Source: Pseudoalteromonas piscicida (GTDB taxonomy: Bacteria; Pseudomonadota; Gammaproteobacteria; Enterobacterales; Alteromonadaceae). From it: DNA of 64,000 bases. A program made the position numbers and the translations under genes. The stretch lies in contig NZ_CP011924.1 of the NCBI RefSeq assembly GCF_000238315.3, positions 3,742,001 to 3,806,000 of the forward strand, in the 5' to 3' direction. The notes under the pieces are model-generated. The model was not told the origin of the DNA. It did no database searches and was given only the letters and a program-made list of their open reading frames with translations. Shown here piece by piece: positions 32,948 to 64,000 of this stretch (position 1 is the stretch's first letter; each line of letters begins with the position of its first letter).

Positions 32948-33059
32948 AAGTCTGATTGAGTGGTGAAATCAACACGAATTGTAACAGTTAAAGCACTTCG
33001 CTTTTTGTTATCTTGATGTAATATCATTGTTGTTAAACGGAAATGTAAGGAACAAGAAC

Positions 33060-35797: not shown

Positions 35798-38700
35798 ATG
35801 AATACAAATATTGTTACTATACTCGCGGGTTTAGCGCGTACTCGATCTCAAGATATTGCCTATCAGTATTTTTACGATGAGGCATTACCAAGTAAAACCA
35901 TTTCCTACCAAGAGCTGCATGAGCGTGCAGCCTCTATTGCTGAGACATTGAGTGAATATTTTGAACCGGGTGACAGAGCATTATTACTGTACAACTCTGG
36001 ATTTGAATTTATTGAAGCCTTTTTTGCTTGTTTATACGCAGAGATTATTGCAGTACCGGTCTATCCACCTAAAAAGAATCAAAATGTTGATCGTCTGCGC
36101 GCCATCATCGAAGACGCAGGTGCCAAAGGTGCGCTTACCAGTGAAAAGATCAATGAAATCGCCAAGCCATTGCTTGATTCTGAGCCAAGTCTAGCGCAGT
36201 TAGCACTATTTACTACCGATAACATTGCACTTAAATCGACGACTCAACAGTGGCCTCGTGCACAGATCCGTGGTGAGCAATTGGCATTTTTGCAATATAC
36301 CTCAGGCTCGACGGGCACACCTAAAGGCGTAATGGTAACCCACGACAATATTCTTGATAATCAGGCGCTAATGAAAGAAGCGTTTGGTCACGATAGCAAC
36401 TCTTCGATTGTAAGTTGGTTGCCTCATTTCCATGATATGGGACTGATTTTTGGCATTATGCACCCAATCTACATTGGTGCGACAGCGGCGCTGATGAATC
36501 CGGCTTATTTCCTGCAAAAACCGCTACGTTGGCTAAAACTGCTTTCACAAACCAAAGCATTGACGTCAAGCGCGCCAAACTTTGCCTATGACCTGTGTGT
36601 GGACACCGTCAAAGATGAAGATCTTAAAGACTTAGATTTGTCCCATTGGCGCTCAGCATTAAATGGCGCAGAACCAGTGCGTGCCAGCACGTTAGAGCGC
36701 TTTTATCAAAAGTTTAAAGTGTGTGGCTTACAAAGAGAAAGTATCGCACCTTGTTACGGCATGGCAGAAACCACCTTATTTGCAACAGGTGGACGTCTTC
36801 TAGAAAAGCCAAGGATATTACGTATTGATGCGACCAAGTTACAGCAGGGTAAAGCCGAACAAGTCGCAGATGAAGATACAGTAGATGCGTTTTATGCGTT
36901 AGATGTGGCTGATGAACAGCAGCCTTATTACGCAGTATCTTCTGGCGTGAGTTGGGGCGAGCATAGTATTGCGATTGTTAACCCAGAGTCTTTTGAAGCC
37001 TGCAATAATGGTGAAACCGGAGAAATTTGGGTAACTGGACCAAGTGTAGCAAAGGGATATTGGAATAACCCAGAAGCAACTAAGGCTACGTTTCATGCCA
37101 GAATTAAAGGTGCTGACGAGCGGGCTTATCTGCGTACTGGTGATTTAGGCTTTATCCTGCGTGGGGAATTATTCGTTACAGGACGCGCCAAAGACGTGCT
37201 TATCTTCCGCGGTAAAAACTACTACCCGCAAGATATAGAACTTACGATTACAGAAGCAAGCGATAGCTTAGAGCAAAATGGCGGTGCGGCGTTTTCGGTA
37301 GCTTCCAATGGCGATGAAGAACGTTTGGTGATTGTGCAGCAAGTTAAGCGTACCGCGCTTAGAAAGTTAGATACTGAGAAGGTATTGCAGCAGATCACCG
37401 CTGCGATCGTTGAGCACCACGGCATTACGCCTTATGACATCGTATTGATAAAGCCTGGTCGCATTCATAAAACATCGAGCGGTAAAATTCAGCGCCAGGA
37501 GAATAAACGCAGTTATTTAACCGATAATTTTGAAGTAATTGCGCGTGCCCGTGAAGAAGCTACGCCACAACAAGCTGAGGTGTCATCATCCTCATCGTCA
37601 CTACAGCAAATTCAGCGGTTATTACAAGAGTTAGTCGCACAAGAAATAGATAAGCCCGCGCGTAGTTTGGATATCGACGCGCCATTCTTGGCATTAGGTG
37701 TGGATTCGATGAAAGCGGTGCGGATCTCAGGGGAGTTAATGGAAGTACACGAGCTAGATCTTGAGCCTACGGTACTTTACGAATATCCCTCAATTCGCGA
37801 ACTAGCCCAGTACTTAAGTCAGTTTAGTACGCTTACTCAAGCTCTAGGACAGACAGAGCTTAACGAGTCGAAAGGTACTGAGCAAGCGAATAAGACGCAA
37901 GCCTCTCGCCGAACTGCACATATTGCGGATACAGATATTGCCGTGATTGGCATGGCCTGTCGTTATCCTTCAGCAAATGGGCTTGAGGCATTTTGGCAGT
38001 TGTTAAGCCAGCAGGGCGATGGCATCACCACGCCAGATCCTAAGCGCCAGCAGCTTTGCCCTAACCTTGAAGCCGACCGTCTCGGTGGTTATCTAGAGAA
38101 TGTCGATGAGTTTGACGCTGCATTATTCGGCATCTCGCCACTCGAAGCTAAGCATATCGACCCACAGCATAGGTTATTGCTCCAAACGACTTATCACGCC
38201 ATACAGCATGCTGGTTACCAACCCGCCACGCTCGCAGGTAGCGATATTGGCGTGTATGTTGGTATATCGCAAAATGACTACTTTTTATTGTCGCAACAAC
38301 AGCAAAAAAGTACCGCGTATTTAGGCACGGGTACAGCGCTGAGCATTGCTGCAAACCGCATTTCTTATAGCTTTAATTTTACCGGCCCAAGTGTGGCAAT
38401 TGATACGGCGTGCTCGTCATCGCTGGTGGCACTTCATCATGCAATTCAAGCACTAAGAAATGGGGAAACGAACGCGGCATTGGTGGCGGGCGTTAATCTT
38501 ATTCTGAGCGATGATGTGACTAAGGCCTGTGAAAACGCACAAATGTTGGCAGCAGACGGCCATTGCAAAACTTTTTCACAGGCAGCGGATGGCTATGTGC
38601 GAAGTGAAGGCGTTGGGGTGGTGATGCTAAAGCCGCTACAACAAGCCATGGCAGACAACGACCCGATTGTTGGTGTACTCAAAGGCAGCGCAATTAATCA

Positions 38701-41700
38701 AGACGGCCGCAGCAATGGTATTACTGCGCCAAATAGTGCCGCGCAACAGGCAGTGATCAATGCAGCCCTTGGTAATGCCAAGATGCAGGCGGGAGATATC
38801 CACTATGTGGAAACCTATGGCACGGGTACGGAGCTTGGCGATCCTATCGAGATCACTGGGTTAAACCGCACGTATGGAGAACACCATAGTCGTCATAATC
38901 CGGTTATTCTCGGTGCGGTAAAAGCGAATATTGGCCACCTTGAGTCCGGCGCGGGTATTGCTGGACTTATCAAAACGCTACTGTGTTTACAGCATGGGCA
39001 AATTCCTGCGCAGCGTTATAGTGAGGTGTTAAATCCGCATATTCCATGGCAAAAACTTCCGTTTATGGTGCCGCAAAGCATGCAGACATGGCCTGTACAA
39101 CAGGGGGGAATAAGAGCCGCTGGATTAAGCTCTTTTGGTTTTGGTGGTACTAATGCACATGTGATCTGCGCACAGGCTCCAGCGCCTAAACCCGACACAC
39201 AAGCTGAAGTAACACCGCCTTCGTTTTATCTATTGCCTCTCGCTGCTAAATCGAAAGCTGCATTGCAGCATCTTGCTGGTCACTATAGTGAACGATTGTC
39301 GAGTCTGACTCCTCAAGCGTTTGATGACTTTTGTGCACAAAATGCCGAGCAAGTGCCGCTTAAGGGGGTGCATAAAACGTTTAGTGGTGTGAGTAGAGAA
39401 ACACTTATTTCGCAACTGAATACTTCTATTATTGCCGAACCGTCCTCGGTAAATGCTGCGCCAGAAGTTGTGTTTTTGTTCACCGGACAAGGTTCGCAAT
39501 ACCCCTTGATGGCTCACTCTTTATATCAACACCATGAAGTGTTTCGTAGCCAGTTAGATGACATTGACAGTTTGGTTGGCGAGCGCTTTGGTGCACGCCT
39601 GTTGGATGTGTTATTCGATGAAAAGTATAGTGAACTACTGGCGCAAACGCGTTGGACGCAAGTGAGCTTGTTTGCCGTTGAGTACAGTGTGGCAAAATTA
39701 TTGATGCATTATGGGGTGAAGCCATCCCAGCTGCTCAGTCATAGCGTTGGTGAATATGCGGCTGCTTGTATTGCTGGCGTGTTTTCGCTTCGTGATGGCG
39801 TTGAGTTGATAGCGGCGCGTGGTCAACTAATGCATGCATTACCGATAAAAGGCAGCATGATCGCCGCAAGATGTGATGAAATAACCGCACGCAATTGCTT
39901 GAGTGAGTATCAAGGGCAAGTGGTGATCTCAGCCTTCCATGGTGAGGCTGGGGTAGTATTCTCCGGTGCTGATGAAGCAATCACAGCCCTCAGTGACGTA
40001 CTTGCAGTACAGCAAATTAAAGTAAAAGCGCTGCATACGGCAAACGCTTTCCACTCTCCATTGATGACTCCCATGTTAGACGCCTTTAGGGAAGTCGCTG
40101 AGCAGGTGAGATTTCAACAGCCTCGGCTGCCTTTTGTTTCATCCATGACAGGACATGTAGAGAGCGCACGTATCGCAAAAGCTGAATATTGGGTTGAGCA
40201 AATTATGGCACCGGTTCGCTTTGTTGACTGTGTAACTGCTCTGGAGTCACTAGAGCATGGCTTCGCGATTGAGCTTGGTCCCAAACCTATTTTGAGTGGC
40301 TTACTGCAAGAAAACAGTAATAACAAAGCGCTCAATTATGCCCATGTATTGCACCCCAAAGGCGATGACAGCATGAAGTTCGCCGAGTGTTTAGGCACAT
40401 ACCTCGATTTAGGCGGGGCGCTCGAATGGCAACAGGTGTATGGCAATCGCCCGAGCGCTAGAGTGAGTTTGCCGCAATATCCATTTGATTGCAGTTCATA
40501 CTGGATTTTTGGTACTGAACAATCACAGCTCGAAGCACAAACAGTGGCAGAAGCGAGTGACCGTGATGCTCAGATCCGCAGCTTTGTGATCAATACCCTA
40601 GCGGGACTCTTGTCGATGCCCGCTGATGCTATCCAAACCAACCTTCCGTTGTTAGAAATGGGGGTTGATTCGTTGATGATCATGCAGGCCGTTAGAGTAT
40701 ACGAACGGGAATTCGGTTTAGAGTTTAGTGTTCGTCAATTTTATCAAGAGCTCAGCGATGTCGATAAGTTAGTAGCCTATATTCAACGCCATAGTAACTA
40801 TCTCAAAGCACCGCAAGGTCCTCAACAAGCGGGCAGTTTGCCATCACCTGTATCGGGCACGACTGATACGCCAAAAGGTAGTGTAGTAGGGGCTGACAAT
40901 CAGACGCTTGTCGCTATCTATCAGGCGCAATTGCAGGCGGCAAGCACTGTGACCAACGCTGAAGCAAGAGCCGCGTTAGAAGCTGTAGTAGGGCAGCAGT
41001 TACGCCATATACAGGGCGTGAAAGTTGAAAACAGTGCAGTTACCTCAACAGCAACCTTGGTATCAAAACCCCATCCAAGCAGAGCCCAATCCGTATTACC
41101 TGGGGCACAACAAAAACAAGTGCAGCGTGCCAATAGTAGCCCGGCCATACGCCAACATCTTGCTGCATTGAGTGATGCTTACATTGCGAAAACGCACAGT
41201 TCAAAAGCGCTAGTGAGCGAATATCGCGCACGCCTTGCGGATTGCCGTGCTTCGGCGGGTTTCAGACTGTCGAGCAAAGAGCTACTTTATCCGGTGTTTT
41301 CTAAGCGCTGTGAAGGCGCATATATCTGGGATATCGATGATAATCGCTATATTGATATCACCATGGACTTTGGTACTAACTTATTTGGTCATAACCCTGA
41401 CTTTATCAAAAAAGCACTGGCGCAACAGCTTGAAGCCGGGATGCAACTGGGGCTTGCAAGTCCTGATGCGCCTGAGGTTGCTGCACTTATCTGTGAACTG
41501 ACTGGGCTTGAGCGTGCATCGTTTTGTAACTCTGGTACAGAGGCGGTCATGACGGCGCTACGTTTGGCAAGAACAGTGACTAAGCGCGATAAAATTGTTC
41601 AGTTCTCAGGCGCGTACCATGGTCACTATGATGGTACTTTAGCTACTGAGTCGCCAGAGCAAGGCGTAGAGGCAATGTGCGCTGGAGTGCGTTATGGCGC

Positions 41701-44700
41701 AATCGCCGATAATCTCGTTTTACCTTATGGTGATGATGAGTCGCTAGAGGTTATTACCCGAGAGGCGCAACATATTGCTGCGGTGATTGTTGAGCCGGTA
41801 CAAAGCCGTCACCCTGAAAATCAACCTTGGGCGTTTTTACGTAAACTACGTATGCTCACTGAAGCACATGGTATTGCCCTTATTTTTGACGAAATGATCA
41901 CCGGCTTTAGAGCACATCCCGGTGGTGTTCAAGGTTTGATAGGGGTTAAGGCCGATATGGCAACCTATGGCAAAATCGTCGGTGGTGGTATGCCTATCGG
42001 TGTGGTCGCGGGGGCCGCTACCTACCTCGATGCCATTGACGGCGGCAATTGGCAATACGGAGATGATTCCTACCCCTTGACCGATACCACCTTCTTTGCT
42101 GGGACTTTCTGCAAACATCCAATGACCATGGCAAGTGCCAAAGCAGTGTTGCAAGCTATTCAGTCGCAAGGTCCAGCGTTACAACAAGGGATCAACGACA
42201 AAACCGCGGCATTTAAAGCACATCTCAATGCGTTTTTTGAAACCCATGACGTACCCATTCGAATAGAAGCGTTTGCCTCATTATTCCGTTTTCGCTTTTC
42301 GCAAAATCTTGATGTGTTCTTTTATGAAATGCTAGAGCGCGGTGTGTTTATCTGGGAAGGACGTAACTGCTTTTTCAGCGCCGCCCATACAGATGAAGAC
42401 ATTGCAGCGGTGATAAACGCAGTTGAAGCCAGTGTACTTAGCTTAAAACGTGCGGGTTATTTTGGTGAAGCGAGCCAAAGTGATGATGCTGCATTTCCAC
42501 TTAGCCATAGCCAGCAACAGCTATTAGCGATGGCGCTGACCTCAAGCGATGGAGCGAGCGCATATCAATTACAAGCGATATTAAAGCTCTCCGGTAAGCT
42601 CGATTTAGCGCGGCTGCAACAAGCTATTACTGCGGTCTGCCGCGACTTCCCAATCTTGCGTTTTAGTGTCGATAGTGATCGCTTAATGCAATATTGCCGA
42701 GTGGAAAAAGCCGAGTTGCATGTTGAGCCATGGAACGAAGAAGACCAAGTAACATTGCAAAGGCGGTTATCCGCGCTGCGTTATCAACCGTTTGACTTTG
42801 TCAAAGACGCACTTTGTAGAGTGACGCTGTTGAGTGATGGCAAAGCACAGCACTATCTAAGTGTTGTGGCCCATCATGTGATCTGCGATGGGCTTTCACT
42901 ACAGATGGTGCTGGCAGCAATCGCTGAGCGCTACAATCAGGATGCAAAACAAAATGAGGTGGCAAGCCGAGCTGTCTCCTTTAGTCACTACGTTGATAGC
43001 TTGCAGGCATATTCGCATTCACCGGAAGCCGCAAAAAACCAAGCTTTTTGGCACCGGTGCTTAGCGAGTTCAACACCACTTGAGCTGCCAAAATCAACGA
43101 CGGTGAGCGTGGCTTCATACCAAGTTAATCAGCTCACATTACCCATTTCTTCGAGTGCAATCCGAAACACTGAGAGCCTTGCTCAGTCTTTACGCTGTGG
43201 GCAATTTGCGACAATGCTTGCACTTTATTGCTTGTGGCTACACAAGTTAAGCGGCCAGACTGTGATAAGTGTAGGAGTGCCGGTATCGGATAGGCAACGA
43301 CTGGCATCGCAGTTTGAGCCTGAGTTACTCGACCAAGCGTTACTGGGCTATTGCACCAATATCTTGCCCATTGTGGTTGATATAGCTGGCCTTAGCGCTA
43401 TCGGTGAGCTGGTACAGCGGGTGCAAAATACTTTACTTGATGCCTTTGATCACCAAACTCATCCGTATGCAAGCCTTGCCGATGATCAGCTAATTCTACC
43501 TAGCACTATGTTTAATCTAGATAAAGTCACCACTTTGCCGAGTTTTAATGGGCTAGAAGTTGAGGTACAGCCAAGTGTAGCTAAATTTGGCCAATTTGAA
43601 CTGACGACAAATATGACCTGTGTTGCAGGACAGTGGTCACTGTTAGTGGAATATCACACAGCGCAATTTGATACTGAGTTAATGACCCAGTACGTGGCTA
43701 AGTTCGTCCATTTGCTGTCGCAGGTTCAAGGCAACACACCTATGGGGGCTCAAAATGAGTTGATACAAAGTAGTGATGATATCCACAGGTTAGTTGAGTT
43801 ACCACTAGAGCAAGAGAAGTCGGTTAAGGTCGCGACGAGTTTCATTGAAACTTGGCAGCACAATGTATCGTGCCGCAGCAAGCGTACGGCACTGGTAACG
43901 GATGATGTGAGTCTCAGTTATGAAGCGCTTGATGCGCGTGTTAACCAGCTGGCTCACTACTTGATGAAGCAGCAGGTAACGCCCAATAGTATCGTGGCGG
44001 TGGCATTACCACGCAGGGCGGAGCTGTTGATAGCACTGATGGCGGTGATGAAAGCTGGAGCGGCATTTTTACCACTCGATCTCACCTTTCCTGACGAGCG
44101 CATCGCGCATATTTTGCATGATGCCAAAGTGAGTGTTGTGCTGTGTGATGCCAGCAGTGCAGAGTCTGCGTTATTCAATCATGGTCGTTTCAAACGAGTC
44201 TGTATGGATAGCGATGCTGAAGACATTGCTAACAGTGCAGTTCGCAGCCCAAGCTTGCTAATTCAAGCTCAGCAGCGTGCTTACGTGATTTATACCTCTG
44301 GTTCCACGGGGTTACCCAAGGGCGTTGAAGTTAATCACGGGGCATTTGTTAATCTGCTTGCATCTATGAGTCGTGAGCCGGGGTTGGTGGCAGATGACCG
44401 CTTATTGGCCATCACCACAGTGGCGTTTGATATTGCCTTGCTTGAGTTGTTTGGGCCATTACTCGTTGGTGCGTCGGTGGTGCTGGCAAGTGATGAAAGT
44501 ATTAGCGATCCTGCTGTGCTCGGCGCGCTTATTGAACAGCAGCAGATCACGGTGATGCAGGCAACGCCAACGCTATGGCAATTAGTGTTAAATGCGGCGC
44601 CAGCATGCACTTCTGGCATAAAAGTATGGAGTGGCGGTGAGCCTTTACCTCAGGCACTGGCCGCGCAGTTATTTAGTCACAGCAAAGCGGTTTATAACTT

Positions 44701-50241: not shown

Positions 50242-51583
50242 ATGGCTTTATGACAGCAATTTGTGGCAAGAAGCGAGTGTAGTTAGTTTTCATCAGCAGT
50301 TTTGTTATGTGTTATCGCAATGTCTTGCAGAGCCAAATACCCCGTTGTCAGCATTGTCATTGTGGCCAGCTGAGCAGCAGTTAGCTCTATTAAAACAGCA
50401 GCAAAGTGTTGCGGTAGAAGTGACAGAGCAACAGCCATGGGTAACTCAGTTTAGTCAGGTGGCTCTTCAGACCCCACTACAGACTGCGGTGCGCATGGGA
50501 GAGTTTACTTGTAGTTATCTCACCTTAGAAAAATGCGCGAACCAACTTGCTAATAGCTTATTAGAAATGGCATTTGCTGAGCAAAGTCGCATTGCTATTT
50601 TACTGTCGTCTTCGAGTTACATGGTGGCCGCGGTGCTGGCAATATTAAAAGCGCGCCATACCTATGTGCCCATTCATCATGACACGCCAACCGATACCTT
50701 AGCCTATATCATGGATGATGCAGACATCGTATTGACGCTGGCGCTAAGTGAAGATGCCGAGCGCTTGATTGAAGCCGGTAGTGACTTTTTGTTGCTTGAT
50801 GATTTGTTCGAAGCCGAAGGGAACTTTGCGTTTTACGATACCAGTTTGTTGGTAGATGAAGATGCATCTGCATTTAACCAAGCCGAGCTTGCCTATGTTA
50901 TTTATACCTCAGGTTCAACCGGGCAGCCAAAAGGGGTGCCCATTAGTCATGGCAACCTCAATAATTATCTGCGTTTTGCGTCTCAGCGCTACTTGCCACA
51001 ATCGGGTGGCATAACCAAGGCCGTACTCAGTACACCGCTGGCGTTTGATGCGACGGTGACCGCCTTGGTGCCTATTTTAATGCGAGGCGGTGAGCTTGAG
51101 CTGCTCCCTACGGACGCCGAATTGTTGCCTGCGTTACATGAACAGATTTTTGCCGCTACGGAAGCCAAGTTATTCAAGTTAACACCGGCTCACTTACGCG
51201 CGGTATTTGCATTAAGTGACGCACAAACTCATAACAATATCGCCCACCGATTTGTGGTTGGCGGTGAAGGGCTAAGCGCAGCCTTGGTTGATAAGCTGAT
51301 GGATAAGCTCCCTAACGCCCAGTGGATAAACGAATATGGCCCAACAGAGGCAACAGTCGGCTGTAGTATCTATGCTGTAAGCCGTGAGTCACGCCACCTG
51401 TTAGCGGGCCACGAAGAAGTGCCTATCGGTCATACTATCGATAATATGACCCTTGCGGTAGTCGACGAATTTGGTGAACTGGCTTTACCTAACATGCCCG
51501 GAGAGCTTTGGTTGGCGGGAGATGGGGTGTGTGAAGGCTATATTAATCTCGCGAGTGTGACGCAAACACGCTTTGTTGAGTAA
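50225..51583 (+). CDS. NRPS subunit 2, middle fragment: end of C and most of an A domain
   Basis: This frame continues the broken C domain (DVLTVEWLYDSNLWQEAS) and then encodes most of an A domain: 'YTSGSTGQPKGVPISHG' (A3), 'AFDATVTALVP' (A4), 'KLTPAHL', 'NEYGPTEATVG' (A5) and 'GELWLAGDGVCEGY' (A6). It stops at an in-frame TAA (51581-51583) before A7. The code read by eye is DATKVGEVGK, Asn-like. If translated separately it would start at a TTG at 50261 with no good ribosome-binding site, so it is best seen as a fragment. Confidence 0.88.
   Translation, partial: DVLTVEWLYDSNLWQEASVVSFHQQFCYVLSQCLAEPNTPLSALSLWPAEQQLALLKQQQSVAVEVTEQQPWVTQFSQVALQTPLQTAVRMGEFTCSYLTLEKCANQLANSLLEMAFAEQSRIAILLSSSSYMVAAVLAILKARHTYVPIHHDTPTDTLAYIMDDADIVLTLALSEDAERLIEAGSDFLLLDDLFEAEGNFAFYDTSLLVDEDASAFNQAELAYVIYTSGSTGQPKGVPISHGNLNNYLRFASQRYLPQSGGITKAVLSTPLAFDATVTALVPILMRGGELELLPTDAELLPALHEQIFAATEAKLFKLTPAHLRAVFALSDAQTHNNIAHRFVVGGEGLSAALVDKLMDKLPNAQWINEYGPTEATVGCSIYAVSRESRHLLAGHEEVPIGHTIDNMTLAVVDEFGELALPNMPGELWLAGDGVCEGYINLASVTQTRFVE
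51581..51583 (+). other. In-frame TAA inside an adenylation domain
   Basis: The reading frame before (TRFVE) and after (AVPASGTSSLRWYRSGDKA) is continuous A-domain sequence, with no frameshift. A single substitution from CAA, GAA or AAA would create this stop. Confidence 0.9.
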
Positions 51584-54500: not shown

Positions 54501-55546
54501 GCGTGGTTGCTCAAGTCGGGGCACTGATGCCACAGGCTCATTTTTATAACGAATATGGCCCAACAGAAGCAACAGTCGGTTGTTGTGTGTATCGCTGTAA
54601 CGGCCAAGATGCAGTGTCGCTTGCACAACAATCGCAGCGCTTTGTGCCAATCGGTAGCGCCATTCAAGGCACTCATTTGGTGGTGCTGGATCAGCATCAA
54701 CAGCCTGTGCCTATGGGCATGCCCGGTGAGCTATACATCGCAGGCGATAATGTGGCTCAGGCGTATTTTGGGTTGCCAGAGCTCAGCGCCAGTAGATTTG
54801 TGTCATTGTCTTTGAGCAATAACTTGCAGCGTTATTATCAGACGGGCGACCAAGTGCGTTGGCTGCTAGATGAAGAGGGCTGCCCTTGCGTGCTGCAATT
54901 TATTGGTCGTCGAGACAACCAAGTTAAGCTGCGTGGTTATCGCATCGAGCTTGAAGAGATCGCGGCGCAACTTGAGCAACTAGATGCAGTGCAACAAGCA
55001 CATGTGTTACTTAACGAAAGTAAAGATAACTTACAGGCCTGTGTGGTGCTAACTACGCCATCCCAAAGAGATACCATCTGTGAGCTTGAACAGGCGCTAC
55101 ACACTCAGATTTTAACCTCGTTAGCAGAGGTCCTACCAAGTTATATGTTGCCTTATAAGCTGTATGCACTGGCTGCTATGCCGCTCACTAATAATGGCAA
55201 AGTAGACTCGGGCGCGCTTGCACAACTGGTGCAATCGCAACAGGCGCAAGCGCTTACGGCACCTTTAGCTCCTATGACTGAACTACAAATGCTGCTGGCA
55301 GAAATTTTTTCTCAAGTGCTCAACACTCAAGTTAGAGATATTAACAGTAACTTCTTTGAGTTAGGGGGGCACTCTTTATCAGCAAGCCAAGCGGTTGCCT
55401 TAATTGAACAGGCGCTTGAGGTGCCTATCACCTTAAAAGTATTGTTCGAGCGGCCAAGTGTAAGCACACTTGCAACTTGGTGTGAGATCCACCGTGCAGC
55501 CAAAGCGGCAGACGAAAGCGGCCAGTCTGAGGAGATGTTTTTGTGA
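51584..55546 (+). CDS. NRPS subunit 2, last part: A(end)-PCP-C-A-PCP
   Basis: It continues the interrupted A domain in the same frame (A7 'RWYRSGDKA', A8 'KLRGYRI', A10 'LTANGKVDKQAL'). Then PCP (Ser in LGGHS near 52135), C (52290-53600, HHIASDG), A (53680-55220) and PCP (55290-55480). The full A domain's code, DATKVGEVGK, is identical to that of the interrupted one. An isolated start would be GTG at 51587 without a ribosome-binding site. The C-terminus is acidic and ends SEEMFL, similar to the TEMDL end of subunit 1. The stop overlaps the next gene (ATGA-type). Confidence 0.92.
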   Translation, partial: AVPASGTSSLRWYRSGDKAKWQANARGEADYLCYLGRLDEQVKLRGYRISLVAIAHQIDALAQVKSCAVSVDEAQESLVAHVVLNGEAKLTLVQLRQALSQSLPSYMLPAALDIVADLPLTANGKVDKQALQFAYQAQAKSHEVAEVVDGSKLTDIQRYLLELYRELLPSQVQSINDSFFDLGGHSLLAIKVISRVRGEQRRDITLPQLFDAPSIAAFAEVITASSMIAHSHTIEPVSRAQALPLSFAQQRLWLIDQLHEQSLQYHMPASYWCEGALDIDALTQALSAIVARHEVLRTVIVPANGEHGAVQQVRDQVACPVELVDLSGLNNAEQQLRWQTLQQQSLSKPFDLCQDTMLRVICVQFSHNQFGLLFNMHHIASDGWSMALLAKEFVAFYRHFSEAPAYPLPEQYAKPLAVQYADFAYWQQQQQDRYQADLAYWQTQLQQCPVVHELPLDFERPQVQSLDGECIRHTLTTSQVEAIKAQCQAQGVTLYMWLQSAFSLLMLRLSQTQDIVIGSPIAGREVKELEGLLGCFVNTLAIRAHKVGAPSFNDWLSEQKQVILAAFAHQSLPFEQLVDAINPPRSLAHSPVLQILFALQNNEQSDFKLPHLKIEQQLDLKPAMKFDLEVNAQESGSEIAVQWNYAKALFKHTSVQAMVDAFVTLIDAALISPEQSVNTLPLVESKALSELGLATQAQPQSPWFISDKIQHFAQHHANHNAVRDMAGKRLSFGELESQSNQLARYLIEQGVTARSQVAISLAPSCEQVVALLAVLKVGAVYVPLDPNAPSQRQQYIVRDSKAACLITTSALLPNSADLSCRVMLIDTEQGWLNMPVEALAPLSDIDAPAYIIYTSGTTGQPKGVVVSHRNLHLYLEHVSHSYLQGDIQESVVSTPLAFDATVTSLWGALVNGLGVVLLSDGEQLITELSACLAREESLLFKLTPAHLQGVLARLQPSNAAHHIVVGGEALSSSVVAQVGALMPQAHFYNEYGPTEATVGCCVYRCNGQDAVSLAQQSQRFVPIGSAIQGTHLVVLDQHQQPVPMGMPGELYIAGDNVAQAYFGLPELSASRFVSLSLSNNLQRYYQTGDQVRWLLDEEGCPCVLQFIGRRDNQVKLRGYRIELEEIAAQLEQLDAVQQAHVLLNESKDNLQACVVLTTPSQRDTICELEQALHTQILTSLAEVLPSYMLPYKLYALAAMPLTNNGKVDSGALAQLVQSQQAQALTAPLAPMTELQMLLAEIFSQVLNTQVRDINSNFFELGGHSLSASQAVALIEQALEVPITLKVLFERPSVSTLATWCEIHRAAKAADESGQSEEMFL

Positions 55547-58500
55547 TGAATGAACAGCAAAGACAGATAGAGGCGTTGATTGCAGAAGCATTGGCAGCTG
55601 GCGTGACCTTGTATGAAAAAAACGGTGGCCTGGCATTTAAGCAAACCGCTGGATTTCCTCCACAGCTAAAACAGCAAGTGGTTGAATATAAATCAGAGAT
55701 CATTGCCTATTTCCAACAGCAAAGCCGTGATGTGGCGAACTCATCGCCGAAAATAGTCGCGCAGCCAAGCGCGGGGAAAGTCTTACCGCTGAGCTTTGCG
55801 CAGGAAGGACTGTGGTTTATTGAGCAACTGCAAGGTAGCAAGCAGTATTATATGCCCGCCGAGTTTTTGTTACGCGGCAAGCTTAATATTCAAGCAATGC
55901 ACAGCGCCGTACAAAATGTGGTGCAGCGCCACGAAATACTGCGCGCTAGGTTTGTAAAAAATGAACAAGATGGCCAACCCCGGCTGCAAATAACGGATGA
56001 CGTGAGTGCGCCGTTTGAGTGGCTTGATGCCAGTGTAGTACCTGAGGAAACAAGGCAAGCCTACATTGCTTCGCGCATCGCAGCACATCAAAACAAGCCT
56101 TTTGACTTGGCTCATGATTGTTTACTTCGCGTGCTGGTGGTGAGTGATGACGATGAGCATCACCTTGCTTTTAATATGCACCATATTGTCTCTGACGGGG
56201 CGTCAATGGCGCTACTCGCACAAGAGATAGAGGCTGGCTATTGCAAACACATAGGTGCACCTTATACAGCACTTGCAACGATGCAGGTACAATATAGTGA
56301 TTTTAGCCTGTGGCAGCGAACACAGTTAACGCCAGATCGCATCGAGGCACCACTGGCGCAATTAAAACAGCAATTTAGCGAATTAGCGCCGTTGCAGTCA
56401 TTGCCTTGTGATTTTGTCCGTCCAGCGGTGCAATCGTTAACGGGGAAAGTATATCGCCAAGCGCTTGATACATCGTTATTTGCGGCGATCTCGACTCAGG
56501 CGAAGTCGCTCCAGTTGACACCCTTTATGTGGCTACTCAATACCTTTATGTTGTTTATCGCAAGGCTTACGCAATCGCAGCAGGTGATTGTAGGCACGCC
56601 AGAGCTTGGCCGCCATCATCCTGAATTAACGCCGTTAATCGGCTTGTTTGTTAATACCCTCGTGATGCATGCAAAGCTTAAAAGTGATATGCCATTTAGC
56701 CAATGGTTGCAGCAACAAAAAGACCTCAACCTAGCGGCGTTTGAATACCGCGATATTCCTTTTGATAAAGTGGTTGAAGCGGTTGGCGCTCCAAGAGATT
56801 TAAGTCACCATCCGCTAGTGCAAATATTATTTACACTGGAAACCCGTGATGAGCGTGCTTTTACGCTTCCGGGATTATCGGTTCAAGAAGTGCAAAAACA
56901 ACAGGCGGATAGCATAGCGGTAAAATGCGACTTAGAACTTAATGCCGTAGTTGATGAGCAGGCACTTTATTTACATTGGAAGTTTGATAGCAACCTCTAC
57001 ACAGCAGAGACCATCAAACATTGGGCGGATTGCTTTCACACGCTGCTTCAAGCTTGTGTTACAGCCCCTCATACCGCCGTTGGTGAACTTGCGTTACTGA
57101 ACCAAAAACAGCAGCAAGCTTTAATAATGGACGCTCAATGCCAAGCGGCAACTTGGCCTAAGCAAGACACCATCACCAGTTTATTCACGCGCTACGCCGA
57201 GCGCTTTGCCACACGCACTGCCGTGCAAGATAGCACGACTGTGCTGAGTTATCGTGACCTTAACGAGCGAGTCGATGCGCTGGCGATAATGCTGTTACAG
57301 AAAGGGGTCACGCCAAGAACCATGTTGGTGGTGAGTGTATCACGCAGCGTTGAGATGATAGTGACCTTGCTGGCAGTGCTTAGAGTCGGTGCTGCCTACG
57401 TGCCAGTAGATCCCAACTATCCGCAAGAACGCATTGAGTATATTTTGGGAGACGTGCAAAGCCCATGGCTACTTTGTGATAACGCTACCCAGGCACAGTT
57501 TAGTCAGCTTTCATATCAGCTAATTAATGTGTCACAGGCAGAGCCTCAGGCCAGCCGCGAAGCCCTCAAGCAGCTTGATGCTATTCAGGTTGAGCCGCAA
57601 GACTTGGCGTATATGATCTATACCTCGGGCACCACAGGGCGACCAAAAGGCGTACAAATTGAGCATCGTCATGTGGTGCGGTTACTTCATGTTGAGCCCA
57701 ACTTGTTCGATTTTAATGAGCAAGATGTTTGGACTTTATTTCATTCCTTCTGCTTTGATTTCTCTGTGTGGGAAATGTATAGCGCGTTGCTCTTTGGTGG
57801 TCGTCTTGTGGTTGTGGATAAAGCGACTACGCAAGACACCCAAGCTTTTGCTCAGTTGTTGGTTGATGCTCAGGTTACGGTCTTAAATCAAACACCAAGT
57901 GCGTTTTACGCGCTACAAGCCACGCTACTCAATGACAGTCAGTTGGCGAGCCAATGTGCAGTGCGGTACGTGATTTTTGGTGGTGAAGCGTTGCAGCCAA
58001 GTAAGCTACAGCCTTGGGCACAGCACTTACCAAATTGTCAGTTAATCAATATGTATGGCATTACCGAAACCACGGTACATGTTACCTTTAAAGCGCTGGA
58101 GCCTGCGGATCTGACGCTTGGCACCAGTAATATAGGTCGTGCGATTCCGACCACCAGCTGCTATGTACTTGATGACAAGCAAAGGCTCTTGCCACAAGGT
58201 GCCGTGGGCGAGTTGTACGTAGGGGGCGAGGGGGTTTGTCGGGGATATTGGCAACGTGATGAATTAAACGCAACCCGCTTTATTCAAAACCCCTTTAATG
58301 AAGGGTCTGAGCAGCGGCTATATCGCTCGGGGGATCTCGTGCGGCTAATGGCCAGCGGTGAGCTGAGCTATGTTGGTCGAATTGACGACCAAGTAAAGGT
58401 TCGAGGTTATCGCATTGAATTAGGCGAAATTGAAAACCAGTTGCGCCAGCATCCCGAAGTGGCTGAGGTCACTGTGCTGTTAAATCGGCAAGACCCAGAA

Positions 58501-61500
58501 AATGTCTGGATCTGCGCCTTTGTGGTGTTACACAAACAAGTCGAGTTCGACGACATCACGTTGGTCATGCAGCAGTTTTTAAAACAAAATTTACCCGACC
58601 ATATGTTGCCTGCCAAAGTGCAAGCGGTTTCAGCCATGCCACTGACCAGCAATGGTAAAGTAGATAAAAAAGCACTACTGCAGCAACTTGATACAAGCCT
58701 TAACGAAAACACTTATGAAGCACCGATTGGCGAGCTTGAAACCCAACTTGCAAGCTATTTTGCCGAGATACTGCAGCGCGAGTTGGTTGGTCGCTATGAC
58801 GACTTTTTTAGACTCGGCGGACACTCGCTACTTGCTGTAAAACTGGCAAACCATATTCGCAAGACGCTGCACATTGAGTTACCGCTGCAAGCGATTTTTA
58901 CGCACCCTACAGTACAAGGTTTAGCGGCTGCACTTGAAAAGCAAGACGCGCAGCTAAGTGCTATTGCTGTGGTGGATAAAACCAATGGCGTAGTGTTGTC
59001 TTTTGCTCAGCAGCGTTTATGGACACTAGATCAAATGCAGCAGGGCAGCCAGCAATATCAAATTCAAGCGTTATTGGCGTTTTCAGGGGAGTTTGATCTG
59101 AGCGCATTCGAGCAAAGTTGGCAAAAGGTGCTGTCACGGCATCAGGTGTTGCACTCGGCTATCACCAACACGAATGATGGGCCTAAACAGTACCTTGTGG
59201 CTTTGTCTGAGCATTTTGTTACGATCATTGATGTCTCCACACAATCGCCGCTTTGGCAAAACTTGGTTTGGCAGCGCGCGGTACGGGACGACCAAGCACA
59301 GGGTTTTGATCTTAGTAAAGATCTAATGATCCGCGCAACTCTAGTTCGATTTTCATCAGGTTATCATCGCCTTATCGTCAATATGCACCATATTGCTAGT
59401 GATGCTCGCTCTATTGAAGTATTAATGCGAGAGCTTACGCAGTTTTATGCCCATTACACCCAAGGCTGTGAACTTGCCCATGACTTAATTGCGCCACCTG
59501 AGGTGCAATACGCGGATTATGCCCATTGGCATCGATCACTGTGCCAAGGCGCGCAGCAAAGTGCAGATATGGCATTTTGGTCAGCGCACCTTGACGATGC
59601 GCCGCCACTGCACCAATTACCGCTCGATACGCCGCGTGGGCAAGCGGTGAATAATAGCGCGCAAGCATTTAATGAGCAGCTAAGCGCAGAGACTTGGCAA
59701 CGGCTACAACAGCATTGTCAGCGCTTGGCAATAACCCCGTTTATTTGGTTGCATAGCGCGTATGCGGTGGTGCTCGCTAAGTTTAGCCAAGTGGATGATA
59801 TTGTGGTTGGTGCGCCATTTTCAGGGCGGCATCACCCGCAAGTGGAGCAGTTGATTGGCTTTTTCGTCAATGCCTTGCCTATTCGCGTGAAGCTCGATTG
59901 GCAGCAGAGTTTCAGTCAGCTACTCGATATACAAAGAGAGCAGATTGAGCAAGTACATCAACATCAATCACTTCCCTTTGAGCAGCTCATTGACCATCTT
60001 GGTGTTAGCCGTGAGCTGAGTCACCAAAGTGTTTTCCAGTTGAGTTTTGCGTTTAATCCGGAGCCACAGCACACACCGGAGTTTGTAGGCCTTAGCACGG
60101 AAGTTTTAGCGTCGGAAAACGCGCGTGCCAAGTTTGACCTAGAGCTCAGCGCAACAATAAATGGGCAAGAGTTAAGGTTGCACTGGCTATACAACAGTGG
60201 ATTATTTGAAAAAGAAACTGTGGCTAGCATTGCAGAGTGTTTTAATGTTGTGATCGCGCAGTTACTCACGCAGCCTGAGTGCCCGCTTGCGGATATAAAA
60301 CTTTGTAAGGATCAGCTGCTAGAGAATCATGCAATTTCAGGTAAATCAGCACCGGAACACTTGGATCTGTCAGTGCTTGAGCAAATTGAGCGAAATTTGG
60401 CTGTGCCCACGCAGGCCAAACAGATAGCGGTAATTGACACAAACTCAAATCAAACCTTGAGTTATGGTGAGCTTACTGAAAGAGCGAAGGCATTGGCGGC
60501 GCTGTTATTAAGTGAAGGGCTGCAACCCGAGCAGCCTGTGCTTGTTGCGATGACGGGTAGCGCAGAGCTCATTGTGGCGATGTTGGCTGTGTTAAAAGCG
60601 GGTGGATGTTATGTACCTGTGGACCCTCATTACCCTCAAGCGCGAGTCAATTACATCGCTAAAGACAGCGGCGCAGCGCTGGTTTTAACAAAGTGTGAGT
60701 TTGCCGCTCGCTTTGAGATAGCTGAGTTAGATGATAATCACCTTGAGGCTGAATATCGCTCGCCACATGTTATGTGTGTTGATGACGCTAACGTGCAAAC
60801 GCGCCTTGCGGCAATACCATTACCTCAGCAGTTTCCAAAAATTAAGGCTGAGCAGCTGGCCTATGTGATTTATACCTCAGGCACAACAGGTAACCCCAAA
60901 GGCGTGATGATAGCCCACCAAGGGCTGGCGAATTTATGTGGTTGGCACCGACGCGCCTTTGCGGTGGATAATCATAGCGTAGCGAGTCAAACCGCCAACC
61001 CCGCCTTTGACGCGGCAACCTGGGAGATTTGGCCTTATCTATGTGCTGGCGCGAGCTTAGTGTGTGTGCCAAAAACCGTGCTGCAGTCACCGGCCGAATT
61101 AACTGCCTGCTTCAATACGCACCAAGTCACGCATAGTTTTATTGCAACGCCAATCGCTCAAGCGCTGCTCACTGAGCCTTTGTTTAATCCACAAAGCTTG
61201 CGCTATTTGCTGGTTGGCGGCGATAAACTCGGTGCGCTGCAAGCAAAAGAGTACGGATTTACCCTAGTCAATAACTATGGACCTACCGAAGCTTCGGTGG
61301 TCGCGACTTCTGGTGTGGTTGAGTTTGACAAACAGGTGCCAGATATCGGCTTGCCCGTCGACAATAGTCAGCTATTTATCTTAGATCCACAACTGCGGGC
61401 TGTGCCACCGGGGATGATCGGTGAGTTATACGTAACAGGGGCAGGACTTGCCAGAGGATATTTGCATCAACCACAGCTTAGCGCTGAGCGTTTTATTGAG

Positions 61501-61977
61501 CTACAAGTCTCTCCATCGCAAGCGGTGCGTGCCTATAAAACCGGAGATTTGGTTCGCCTGCTGAGCAACGGCCGTATCGCCTATATGGGTCGTAACGATG
61601 GACAAGTAAAGCTGCGAGGTTATCGTATTGAGCTGGCCGAAATTGAACAGCAAATTGGGCTACTATCAAGCGTACAAGAATGTGCAGTTCAGATAACCAC
61701 AAGCGCGTCAAGGCAGCCACAGTTACAGGCATTTGTGGTGGCAAACACTGAGCCTCAAGTGCTTCAAGCCCAGCTAAAGGAGAGACTGCCAAGTTATATG
61801 GTACCAGAGCATTTTGTTATGCTCGCAAGACTGCCTTTGACACCGCATGGCAAAGTTGACCATCGTGCCTTGGCAACGCTTAGTAAAACTCAACAGACTA
61901 CCACAGTAACCGAGCAGAGCGCGGTCACATCACAGGCTAACAGCATCGTAGCCCAGTTACTGGCGATTTATCGGTAG
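55543..61977 (+). CDS. NRPS subunit 3, first part: docking-C-A-PCP-C-A
   Basis: A 2144-residue product. Residues 1-65 resemble a TubC-type docking domain like that of subunit 2. Then C (75-500, HHIVSDG), A (543-1047), PCP (Ser in LGGHS near 1090), C (1150-1585) and A (1620-2115). The second C domain reads HHIASDARS in place of HHxxxDGxS. A-domain codes read by eye are DFWNIGMVHK (identical to the Thr code) and DAWFLGNVVK (identical to a Leu code). The frame ends at TAG (61975-61977) between A10 ('LTPHGKVDHRAL') and the PCP, which continues in the same frame. Confidence 0.93.
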   Translation: MMNEQQRQIEALIAEALAAGVTLYEKNGGLAFKQTAGFPPQLKQQVVEYKSEIIAYFQQQSRDVANSSPKIVAQPSAGKVLPLSFAQEGLWFIEQLQGSKQYYMPAEFLLRGKLNIQAMHSAVQNVVQRHEILRARFVKNEQDGQPRLQITDDVSAPFEWLDASVVPEETRQAYIASRIAAHQNKPFDLAHDCLLRVLVVSDDDEHHLAFNMHHIVSDGASMALLAQEIEAGYCKHIGAPYTALATMQVQYSDFSLWQRTQLTPDRIEAPLAQLKQQFSELAPLQSLPCDFVRPAVQSLTGKVYRQALDTSLFAAISTQAKSLQLTPFMWLLNTFMLFIARLTQSQQVIVGTPELGRHHPELTPLIGLFVNTLVMHAKLKSDMPFSQWLQQQKDLNLAAFEYRDIPFDKVVEAVGAPRDLSHHPLVQILFTLETRDERAFTLPGLSVQEVQKQQADSIAVKCDLELNAVVDEQALYLHWKFDSNLYTAETIKHWADCFHTLLQACVTAPHTAVGELALLNQKQQQALIMDAQCQAATWPKQDTITSLFTRYAERFATRTAVQDSTTVLSYRDLNERVDALAIMLLQKGVTPRTMLVVSVSRSVEMIVTLLAVLRVGAAYVPVDPNYPQERIEYILGDVQSPWLLCDNATQAQFSQLSYQLINVSQAEPQASREALKQLDAIQVEPQDLAYMIYTSGTTGRPKGVQIEHRHVVRLLHVEPNLFDFNEQDVWTLFHSFCFDFSVWEMYSALLFGGRLVVVDKATTQDTQAFAQLLVDAQVTVLNQTPSAFYALQATLLNDSQLASQCAVRYVIFGGEALQPSKLQPWAQHLPNCQLINMYGITETTVHVTFKALEPADLTLGTSNIGRAIPTTSCYVLDDKQRLLPQGAVGELYVGGEGVCRGYWQRDELNATRFIQNPFNEGSEQRLYRSGDLVRLMASGELSYVGRIDDQVKVRGYRIELGEIENQLRQHPEVAEVTVLLNRQDPENVWICAFVVLHKQVEFDDITLVMQQFLKQNLPDHMLPAKVQAVSAMPLTSNGKVDKKALLQQLDTSLNENTYEAPIGELETQLASYFAEILQRELVGRYDDFFRLGGHSLLAVKLANHIRKTLHIELPLQAIFTHPTVQGLAAALEKQDAQLSAIAVVDKTNGVVLSFAQQRLWTLDQMQQGSQQYQIQALLAFSGEFDLSAFEQSWQKVLSRHQVLHSAITNTNDGPKQYLVALSEHFVTIIDVSTQSPLWQNLVWQRAVRDDQAQGFDLSKDLMIRATLVRFSSGYHRLIVNMHHIASDARSIEVLMRELTQFYAHYTQGCELAHDLIAPPEVQYADYAHWHRSLCQGAQQSADMAFWSAHLDDAPPLHQLPLDTPRGQAVNNSAQAFNEQLSAETWQRLQQHCQRLAITPFIWLHSAYAVVLAKFSQVDDIVVGAPFSGRHHPQVEQLIGFFVNALPIRVKLDWQQSFSQLLDIQREQIEQVHQHQSLPFEQLIDHLGVSRELSHQSVFQLSFAFNPEPQHTPEFVGLSTEVLASENARAKFDLELSATINGQELRLHWLYNSGLFEKETVASIAECFNVVIAQLLTQPECPLADIKLCKDQLLENHAISGKSAPEHLDLSVLEQIERNLAVPTQAKQIAVIDTNSNQTLSYGELTERAKALAALLLSEGLQPEQPVLVAMTGSAELIVAMLAVLKAGGCYVPVDPHYPQARVNYIAKDSGAALVLTKCEFAARFEIAELDDNHLEAEYRSPHVMCVDDANVQTRLAAIPLPQQFPKIKAEQLAYVIYTSGTTGNPKGVMIAHQGLANLCGWHRRAFAVDNHSVASQTANPAFDAATWEIWPYLCAGASLVCVPKTVLQSPAELTACFNTHQVTHSFIATPIAQALLTEPLFNPQSLRYLLVGGDKLGALQAKEYGFTLVNNYGPTEASVVATSGVVEFDKQVPDIGLPVDNSQLFILDPQLRAVPPGMIGELYVTGAGLARGYLHQPQLSAERFIELQVSPSQAVRAYKTGDLVRLLSNGRIAYMGRNDGQVKLRGYRIELAEIEQQIGLLSSVQECAVQITTSASRQPQLQAFVVANTEPQVLQAQLKERLPSYMVPEHFVMLARLPLTPHGKVDHRALATLSKTQQTTTVTEQSAVTSQANSIVAQLLAIYR
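61975..61977 (+). other. In-frame TAG between A and PCP domains
   Basis: The frame before (LLAIYR) and after (VLNTPSMTAKDDYFALGGDS) is continuous. A normal A-PCP linker would have Gln, Glu or Lys here. One substitution explains the stop. Confidence 0.9.
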
Positions 61978-64000
61978 GTATTAAATACGCCATCCATGAC
62001 CGCTAAAGACGACTATTTTGCTTTAGGCGGCGACTCTATTTTGAGTATTCAAATCGCCAGTAAAGCCAAAGCACTCAAGTTACCTGTTAGCGCTACCGAC
62101 GTGTTTACCTACCCCTGTGTTTCGGCACTTGCAGCAAGACTTGCCCAGCAAGATATTCACCTGTCGATGGGTAAAGAAAGGCAGCCATTGGTAGGTCAAC
62201 TCGATAAATTACCAATTCAGCATTGGTTTTTTGCCCAACAATTTGCCAACCCCAGTCATTGGGATCAGAGCGTGCTGGTGAGTGTAGATAAATCCGTTAC
62301 ACCAGCGCAGCTCATGCAAGTGATAGGGTACTTGATAGCCCAGCACGATGCGCTACGTTTGGTGGTTGCGGATGAAAATACCCTATTTATACGTGATGGC
62401 ATTGATATTCAAAAGGTATTTACGGCGCATACGCTTGAGCGTGACGCATGGCAAGCTGAGCTGAGCGAGTTCAGTGAGCAAGTGCAGCAAGGCTTTGCGT
62501 TTACTGGCACGCCACTGTTTAAAGCGGTGTTATATGTTACGCCTGACAGTGAGGCCAATAATCGCTTGTTGTTCAGCGCACATCACTTGCTAGTGGATGG
62601 CGTCTCTTGGCGTGTGTTACTTGAAGATGTGAGCCAGCTACTACAGCAGCAAATAAACAATGTGCCGTTGGAGCTTCCTGCCGCAAGCGCGAATTTGGCT
62701 GAACTTGCCGATTTTTATCGTGAACTTGCGACCAATGAGCGTGATTTGCGCAAATGGCAGAAGGTAGCTGCACTGGCTGAAACTTCGCACTTATTGAGTC
62801 TTAAAGATACAAGCGCGACCCCAACCATAGCCAAAGTTCGCCACACATTGTCAGCAATGCACACCCGTGCGCTACTGGGAGCCGCCAACACCAGTTATGG
62901 TACGACGGCGCAAGCATTGCTGCTCAGTACACTTGCTTGGTGTGCGCAAAAGCGTGGTGCAGGCAGTGAAGTGATCATGCTAGAAGGACATGGCCGCGAG
63001 TTACTAACCGAGGCACTGGATAGCAGCCGAACTATCGGCTGGTTAACGGCGCTTTATCCAATGCAGTTATTTAGTAATGGCAGCCGCTTGCATGATGTGA
63101 TTTGTAGTATCAAGGCAGAGCTTGAAAGGAGCGCTAAAGTTGCCAGTAGTTATGGTGCTGCACGGTATTTACACCCAGAGCCAAACGTTCGCTCATCGCT
63201 TGAGATTGATACCCGAGGCTTACTGTTTTTCAACTATTTAGGCCAGCTAGATACAGTCATTGAGCAACAAGGTTTGCTGGGAGATGCTCGTGAGTCGACT
63301 GGCACTTTGGTTGCAGAGTCAAACCTCAGTTACTTTGGAGCACAACTAACGGCGGCGGTCGTGGATGGTAAACTGGCGTTAACGCTGGAATTTGACAGCC
63401 AGCGCTTAGCATCTGAAGAAGCAGAGCGATTAAGTAAAGAGATACTCGAAAGTCTAATTCAGGTCATCGAGCATTGCCAATCCCAGCCTCAACGTCATTA
63501 CACAGTCAGTGACTTTGCACTTCTCAGCGGCATTTCTGAAAGGCAGTTACAGCGCATACTTGGGCAGGTTAAAGGAGACGTTGAGGATATTTACCCTCTA
63601 ACTGGTTTGCAGCAAGGCATGTGGTTCCACAGTCAAACGGCACGTGAGGCGGACACTAAAAGCACGCTACCTTACGTAGAGCAAACCAGCTTATTGCTAC
63701 AAGGTTGTGTGGATATAGAGGCGCTGAGTTACGCTTGGCAGCAATTAATTAAACAGCACAGCATATTACGCTCGGCCTTTATAGATGTTGCTGGCGAGCC
63801 GCTACAAGTGGTCTGTAAACATGCCGATGTGCCACTCAAACTGCTGCACAGCAGCGTCATTGCAGAAGAACAATCGCAAATAGTGGAATCACAGGCCGCG
63901 GTGGAGCTTGCCGAGCCGCTTAAGCTCTCGCAAGCGCCTTGTATGCGGTTAAGCTTAATCGCTTTTGATGATGGCAATGTTGGGGTGGTGTGGACCTATC
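61978..64000 (+). CDS. NRPS subunit 3, continuation: PCP-E-C (runs off the window)
   Basis: The frame after the TAG is open to the window end. It encodes the PCP (Ser in ALGGDSIL near 62035) and then an epimerisation domain at about 62200-63520 with its signatures: 'IQHWFFAQQF', 'HHLLVDGVSWR', 'EGHGRE', 'TIGWLTALYP' and 'FNYLGQ'. So the Leu-type residue should become D-Leu. From about 63575 a new C domain starts (EDIYPLTGLQQGMWFHSQ), the form usual after an E domain (DCL type). An independent start would be ATG at 61996, but no ribosome-binding site precedes it. Confidence 0.92.

What the first reader, a model, noticed from the sequence alone, without database searches (positions are those of the whole stretch)
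35798..64000. Iturin/mycosubtilin-type beta-amino lipopeptide assembly line in a Gram-negative marine genome
Seen: FAAL-ACP-KS-AT-ACP-aminotransferase-C-A-PCP, then three C-A-PCP modules, then two modules with E after the last, then a new C domain. Known: MycA/ItuA share the ligase-ACP-KS-ACP-aminotransferase-C-A-PCP order, with the malonyl transferase in a separate protein (FenF/ItuD). Here the AT is in cis. Inference: a beta-amino fatty acid plus at least seven residues, the same peptide length as iturins but different residues.
Basis: partly seen in the sequence, partly recalled or inferred. Interest (0 to 1): 0.8.

Follow-up and report, generated by a model that had tools for sequence, protein, structure and literature searches.

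The report
Known flavipulchrin lipopeptide cluster, interrupted copy
This stretch of a marine Pseudoalteromonas genome encodes the enzyme assembly line for a ring-shaped lipopeptide with a beta-amino fatty acid, a product published in 2026 as flavipulchrin, but in this genome assembly two of its three big genes are interrupted.

Summary
Past the window the line ends in A-PCP-thioesterase: FAAL-ACP-KS-AT-ACP-aminotransferase, then seven NRPS modules. The aminotransferase is MycA-type. A-domain codes read Gly-Asx-Asn-Asn-Thr-Leu-?, with one epimerase after module 6. Module for module this is the Pfl cluster of P. flavipulchra, whose product flavipulchrin (cyclo-3-aminododecanoyl-Gly-Asp-OHAsn-Asn-Thr-D-Leu-Arg) was published in January 2026 (PMC12819058). 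Additions: (1) here genes 2 and 3 each carry a frameshift and an in-frame stop; selection looks normal and the assembly shows other lesions and four perfect tandem duplications, so assembly error is slightly likelier than real decay. (2) The cluster is in 42 of 108 Pseudoalteromonas species genomes. (3) An S12 hydrolase gene and a DUF697 gene accompany it in all 42; I propose a D-peptide hydrolase for self-protection or maturation. (4) The starter domain is a FAAL, not the paper's "Cs domain".

The parts
35744..45718 (+). Gene 1: FAAL-ACP-KS-AT-ACP-aminotransferase-C-A(Gly)-PCP, 3324 aa, intact (first ATG 35798)
   Evidence: one open frame of 3,325-3,433 aa in the 41 other carriers
35798..37540 (+). 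FAAL domain (fatty acyl-AMP ligase, starter activation)
   Evidence: solved relatives 7r7f (named polyketide synthase), 3kxw, FadD23, FadD32, 3pbk (fatty acyl-adenylate ligase); fatty-acid--AMP ligase models, below their cut-offs; PF23024
37619..37816 (+). ACP1
   Evidence: PF00550 626-691
37931..39367 (+). KS
   Evidence: DTACSSS motif
39470..40324 (+). AT in cis, NAFH motif (malonyl-like, motif rule recalled)
   Evidence: PF00698; sequence
40556..40798 (+). ACP2
   Evidence: PF23297 1605-1685; GVDSL motif
41288..42358 (+). PLP aminotransferase domain, MycA type
   Evidence: PF00202; 6kfm MycA aminotransferase, 431 bits
42494..45598 (+). Module 1: C-A-PCP, A code DILQWGLIW (Gly); PCP end approximate
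45718..50241 (+). Gene 2, first open piece: docking domain, module 2 C-A-PCP (DLTKVGHVG, Asp/Asn), most of C of module 3; ends after a frameshift near 50,218
50261..51583 (+). Gene 2, second open piece: A core of module 3 (DATKVGEVG, Asn); ends in an in-frame TAA
51587..55546 (+). Gene 2, third open piece: A C-terminus and PCP of module 3, module 4 C-A-PCP (DATKVGEVG, Asn)
55543..61977 (+). Gene 3, first open piece: docking domain, module 5 C-A-PCP (DFWNIGMVH, Thr), module 6 C-A (DAWILGNVV, Leu-like); ends in an in-frame TAG inside the PCP
61996..64000 (+). Gene 3, second open piece (runs on past the window): rest of PCP6, epimerase domain (62212-63516), C7 from 63580. Beyond the window: A7 (second frameshift, window-equivalent about 65,769), PCP, thioesterase, then TauD oxygenase (67,636), S12 hydrolase (68,659), DUF697 (70,329), cyclic-peptide ABC exporter (71,302)

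Best explanation
It is the flavipulchrin (Pfl) assembly line of Pseudoalteromonas. The FAAL adenylates a free C9-C10 fatty acid and loads it on ACP1; KS and the in-cis AT add one malonyl unit; the beta-ketoacyl-ACP2 is transaminated by the MycA-type domain to a 3-amino fatty acyl chain; seven NRPS modules add Gly, Asp, Asn, Asn, Thr, Leu (turned to D by the E domain) and Arg; the TauD/TfdA oxygenase hydroxylates Asn-3; the thioesterase closes the ring on the beta-amino group; a cyclic-peptide ABC exporter ships it out. Shown in print: the product structure and its link to the Pfl cluster in P. flavipulchra DSM 14401 (deletion mutant and promoter swap). Shown here: that this window carries the same order of domains and specificities. 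Inferred: each chemical step in this strain, and that the strain makes the product at all, since genes 2 and 3 are interrupted in its assembly.
For: Domain order; A codes Gly-Asx-Asn-Asn-Thr-Leu-? (the match of codes to residues is recalled, Arg-7 comes from the paper); one E domain, after module 6; terminal TE and adjacent TauD gene. The paper's Pfl cluster: hybrid NRPS-PKS with aminotransferase, predicted Gly-Asp-Asn-Asn-Thr-D-Leu-Phe, found Gly-Asp-OHAsn-Asn-Thr-D-Leu-Arg with 3-aminododecanoic acid, free-standing TauD PflD, E, TE. MycA-type aminotransferase. FAAL. Cyclic peptide exporter TIGR01194, 350 bits over a cut-off of 286.
Against: I did not have the DSM 14401 sequence by name, so the identity rests on architecture and specificities, not on a direct alignment. 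The paper writes that a 'Cs domain' brings in the starter, while a FAAL stands here and its match lies at 63 % or more in all 42 carriers. Two genes are interrupted in this assembly. My recalled code table gives no residue for module 7, and the script failed to draw that code from this genome because the domain is split. In relatives it failed for module 6 of G018, G013 and G023, and a few other codes (module 1 of G024 and G019, module 2 of G013, module 3 of G024) look mis-anchored.
Confidence: 0.92

Rival explanations
1. The four interruptions are errors of this genome assembly; the strain has an intact cluster.
For: dN/dS of genes 2 and 3 in this genome against six relatives (0.126-0.153) equals that of three pairs of relatives (0.125-0.145), and changes unique to this genome are no richer in amino-acid changes than those unique to the six relatives. 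In a 140-kb control stretch this genome shows a stop or frameshift in 4 of 85 matched ORFs of G095, against 1 of 91 in the other direction, and four perfect tandem duplications of 1.17-1.37 kb that the G095 stretch lacks, as unmerged contig overlaps would give (inference).
Against: Of 60 G014 ORFs compared, 41 found a match in this genome; apart from genes 2 and 3 none of these (39, gene 1 included) is broken, so all four lesions fall in genes 2 and 3. Lesions there are about five times denser than in the control stretch (4 in 7.3 k aa, against 4 in 39.5 k aa).
Confidence: 0.55
2. The strain has really lost the pathway recently: genes 2 and 3 are young pseudogenes.
For: Four separate lesions in the two genes, none in gene 1 or in the 38 other matched ORFs; in one other carrier, G088, the ORFs of genes 2 and 3 are also interrupted.
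Against: No relaxation of selection is seen; the assembly has quality problems elsewhere; 40 of 42 carriers keep gene 3 open at 4,014-4,141 aa.
Confidence: 0.41
3. The pieces are real separate subunits, or the stops are read through, so that the line works as split here.
For: Each piece is open, and the codons of genes 2 and 3 are under purifying selection.
Against: The cuts fall inside a C domain, between an A core and its C-terminus, inside a PCP and inside an A domain, not at linkers; the nine close relatives (91 % or more) keep long open frames for gene 2 (3,235-3,283 aa) and for gene 3 (4,020-4,025 aa).
Confidence: 0.04

Closest known systems
Flavipulchrin (Pfl) cluster, P. flavipulchra DSM 14401 (PMC12819058; abstract, sections 3.3-3.6 and Discussion read, other passages by word search)
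   Same: PKS module with aminotransferase, then Gly-Asp-Asn-Asn-Thr-D-Leu-Arg modules, single E, TE, TauD oxygenase
   Different: Starter domain here is a FAAL, the paper writes Cs; genes 2 and 3 interrupted in this assembly
Mycosubtilin/iturin synthetases (MycA-C, ItuA-C; recalled, with passages on MycA in PMC4219810)
   Same: Fatty acyl ligase-ACP-KS-ACP-aminotransferase-C-A-PCP first subunit; beta-amino fatty acid; heptapeptide ring
   Different: AT in cis instead of a separate malonyl transferase; Gly-Asx-Asn-Asn-Thr-Leu-Arg instead of the Asn-Tyr-Asn start; one E domain
Puwainaphycins (puw cluster, passages of PMC4219810)
   Same: FAAL start, PKS module, class-III aminotransferase, NRPS, TE
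   Different: FAAL and ACP are separate genes there, with a second PKS and a monooxygenase that are absent here
Alterins/ogipeptins of Pseudoalteromonas (passages of PMC7764243)
   Same: Same genus, heptapeptide ring with Leu and Arg, similar mass
   Different: Dab and hydroxy-Dab residues, acyl tail attached by an amide to the heptapeptide ring; not this product

Membership tests
Flavipulchrin (Pfl) cluster | NRPS-PKS hybrid whose seven A domains read Gly-Asp-Asn-Asn-Thr-Leu-Arg in this order | tested here: met
   Asp versus Asn in module 2 and Arg in module 7 are not settled by the code alone
Flavipulchrin (Pfl) cluster | Aminotransferase after the PKS module; E only after module 6; terminal TE; free-standing TauD gene | tested here: met
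Flavipulchrin (Pfl) cluster | High direct sequence identity to the DSM 14401 genes | not tested
Flavipulchrin (Pfl) cluster | Starter unit brought in by a 'Cs domain' (paper's wording) | tested here: not met
   a FAAL stands at this place, with a match in all 42 carriers; I take the wording as loose, so membership is kept on the other features
Iturin family synthetases | Ligase-ACP-KS-ACP-aminotransferase-C-A-PCP in one protein with a MycA-type aminotransferase | tested here: met
Iturin family synthetases | Malonyl transferase in a separate protein (recalled) | tested here: not met
   AT in cis
Iturin family synthetases | Asn-Tyr-Asn first residues with D residues at 2, 3 and 6 (recalled) | tested here: not met
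   Gly-Asx-Asn, one E domain after module 6
D-stereospecific resistance peptidases (for the S12 gene) | S12 fold with Ser-x-x-Lys and Tyr-x-Asn (motifs recalled) | tested here: met
   S105, K108, Y215, N217 invariant in 18 of 18 rows and their counterparts in 25 of 25 rows; fold
D-stereospecific resistance peptidases (for the S12 gene) | Cleaves the cluster's own peptide next to a D residue | not testable with these tools
   needs an enzyme assay

The most novel reading that the evidence does not exclude
The cluster carries a dedicated, undescribed envelope enzyme: an S12 serine-hydrolase lipoprotein, lying next to the cluster in every one of 42 carrier species and without a match (E <= 1e-60) in the 66 other Pseudoalteromonas genomes, which cuts or trims the flavipulchrin ring at a D residue (D-Leu-6 or the D-hydroxy-Asn-3) as self-protection or as a last maturation step. 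That would also mean that the published compounds, inactive in disc tests, might not be the only or the final active form.
Probability: 0.3. Interest if true: 0.5.

Novelty: already known. Interest (0 to 1): 0.28.

Why it matters
The chemistry was published in January 2026 (PMC12819058), so the window adds no new compound class. What is useful is the comparative view: the cluster is a trait of 42 of the 108 Pseudoalteromonas species genomes held here, not a curiosity of one strain; its accessory genes go with it and give concrete targets (S12 hydrolase, DUF697 protein); and the start of the pathway is a FAAL, which changes how one would think about the choice of the acyl chain. The interrupted copy warns that this assembly cannot be taken as evidence for or against production.

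Tried and rejected
Alterins and ogipeptins as the product: rejected, they contain Dab and hydroxy-Dab. Pseudoalteropeptide A: only mentions in a review could be read, its structure is unknown to me, not excluded. Bromoalterochromides: abstract only, lipophilic depsipeptides. The in-cis AT as a novelty: rejected, common. GGT and amidohydrolase genes upstream (31220-35075) as cluster members: present in G014, but no plus-strand ORF of 170 aa or more was listed in the roughly 2.5-2.7 kb upstream of gene 1 in G019, G018, G013 and G023 (plus strand only); left out. Aminotransferase tree: the ten Pseudoalteromonas rows form one clade (100/100) but the deeper forks are weak, so no donor can be named (34 of the 80 loci plus the window; MycA itself is not in the tree). 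C-domain subtypes for the unexplained D-hydroxy-Asn-3 were not re-analysed. Rate of gene-2 interruption across the genus: one search used a threshold that reached only the ten closest genomes, so it says nothing on the other 32 carriers. Searches in print for a role of the S12 gene or a FAAL start in this cluster: searches gave none; the paper's supplement could not be read.
Full report
1. What is there. The window lies at C1:3742001-3806000 of a 5.49-Mb, two-contig genome with 41 condensation-domain matches. The genus is Pseudoalteromonas: the aminotransferase matches at 97-98 % in Pseudoalteromonas sp. HM-SA03, P. piscicida 36Y_RITHPW and P. peptidolytica DSM 14001, and the best protein cluster for gene 1 bears the name Pseudoalteromonas sp. 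XMcav11-Q. I fetched the sequence beyond the window. Gene 1 (35744-45718) is FAAL-ACP-KS-AT-ACP-aminotransferase-C-A-PCP. Gene 2 holds three C-A-PCP modules, gene 3 C-A-PCP, C-A-PCP-E, C-A-PCP-TE. Downstream on the same strand follow a TauD/TfdA oxygenase, an S12 (beta-lactamase-fold) hydrolase, a DUF697 protein, a cyclic-peptide-export ABC transporter (TIGR01194, 350 bits, cut-off 286) and a band-7 protein.

2. The start. The first domain is a fatty acyl-AMP ligase: its best solved relatives are 7r7f (named polyketide synthase), 3kxw (named saframycin Mx1 synthetase B), and then FadD23, FadD32 and a fatty acyl-adenylate ligase 3pbk; after an NRPS/PKS model its NCBIfam matches are fatty-acid--AMP ligase models, all below their curated cut-offs. 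The aminotransferase matches mycosubtilin synthase subunit A (6kfm) with 431 bits, the next family, glutamate-1-semialdehyde aminomutases, with 181. Pfam shows no KR, DH or ER in gene 1 at E <= 1e-5, as a beta-keto intermediate for transamination demands.

3. What it makes. Specificity codes, taken at recalled anchor motifs, are DILQWGLIW, DLTKVGHVG, DATKVGEVG, DATKVGEVG, DFWNIGMVH, DAWILGNVV and, in the seven relatives, DVEMTGAIS; by recalled code tables Gly, Asp/Asn, Asn, Asn, Thr, Leu and unassigned. The seventh code of this genome was not drawn because the domain is split, but its pieces show the same residues. In relatives three module-6 codes (G018, G013, G023) were not drawn and four others look mis-anchored. 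The paper on RECC editing (PMC12819058; abstract, sections 3.3 to 3.6 and Discussion read) reports the Pfl cluster of P. flavipulchra DSM 14401 with the predicted order Gly-Asp-Asn-Asn-Thr-D-Leu-Phe and the isolated products flavipulchrin A and B: cyclic 3-aminododecanoic (or 3-aminoundecanoic) acid-Gly-Asp-OHAsn-Asn-Thr-D-Leu-Arg, tied to the cluster by a 10.5-kb deletion and a promoter swap. They were inactive in disc tests on seven bacterial strains. The order in this window is the same. The paper says that a Cs domain brings in the starter and its main text does not hold the terms FAAL or acyl-AMP ligase; here a FAAL stands in that place. The paper leaves open how Asn-3 becomes D; I did not solve that.

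4. Distribution. The FAAL part of gene 1 has a match of 63-100 % identity in 42 of 108 Pseudoalteromonas genomes, one per species, the next best matches being at 45 % or less; the TE end of gene 3 matches in the same 42 (handle lists compared by eye here and below). In 40 of the 42, gene 3 is one open frame of 4,014-4,141 aa; the exceptions are this genome (629 aa at the TE end) and G088 (2,670 aa). TauD at 70 % or more is in the same 42, with matches of at most 56 % in five further genomes; DUF697 at 73 % or more in the same 42, plus one at 52 %; the S12 hydrolase in the same 42, on the same contig about 1.1-1.2 kb from the TE match, and in no other at E <= 1e-60, with a second copy in seven of them. 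First subunits with an aminotransferase and an AT in one protein are common: 107 of the 120 rows listed (of 5,809 hits). Aminotransferase relatives come from cyanobacteria, Burkholderia, Chitinophaga, Herpetosiphon and others (capped at 80 loci); Pseudoalteromonas forms one clade among the 35 rows that I treed.

5. The interruptions. Gene 2 has a frameshift near 50,218 and a TAA at 51,581; gene 3 a TAG at 61,975 and a frameshift near window-equivalent 65,769. Intact copies exist: in G014, G024, G019, G018, G013, G023, G004, in G067, G055, G098, G076 and, but for a shorter end of gene 2, G075. Of 60 G014 ORFs, 41 had a match in this genome (19 had none, most of them outside the shared stretch); the 39 besides genes 2 and 3, gene 1 included, show no break. 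Yet dN/dS of the interrupted genes is 0.126-0.153 against six relatives, as in three pairs of relatives (0.125-0.145), and substitutions unique to this genome are not enriched in amino-acid changes (N/S 0.53 and 0.50 against 0.41-0.89 for the six others). In a 140-kb control stretch, 11 of 85 matched G095 ORFs were flagged in this genome: by my reading four by stops or a frameshift, six by tandem duplications, one by an insertion; the reverse comparison flagged 1 of 91. The four duplications are perfect and 1.17-1.37 kb long, and absent in the G095 stretch. So the lesions are either assembly errors (my favoured reading, 0.55) or very recent; lesion density is about five times higher in genes 2-3 than in the control stretch, which keeps real decay alive (0.41).

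7. Verdict. The comparative additions are of modest interest. Paper claims above come from the passages named; nothing was taken from supplements.

Noticed in passing
G000:C1:3,420,001-3,560,000 (L130-L136): Four perfect (100 %) tandem duplications of 1.17-1.37 kb, absent from the collinear stretch of G095, and stops or a frameshift in 4 of 85 matched ORFs: signs of assembly trouble in the window's genome.
   Followed up: partly
beyond the window, G000:C1:3,818,547-3,820,136 (L003): Array of about eleven 142-bp direct repeats, 97-99 % alike, downstream of the cluster.
   Followed up: no
G088:C1:242001-278000 (L044, L045): In this other carrier the ORFs of genes 2 and 3 of the cluster are also interrupted (3089, 1384 and 2619 aa).
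   Followed up: no
window:55543-61977, module 6 C domain: The C-domain motif reads HHIASDA instead of HHxxxDG; the HHxxxDG pattern is likewise missing at this place in G014, G024 and G019.
   Followed up: no
window:39470-40324: The AT active-site motif is SHSVGE in the window where G024 and G019 have GHSVGE.
   Followed up: no
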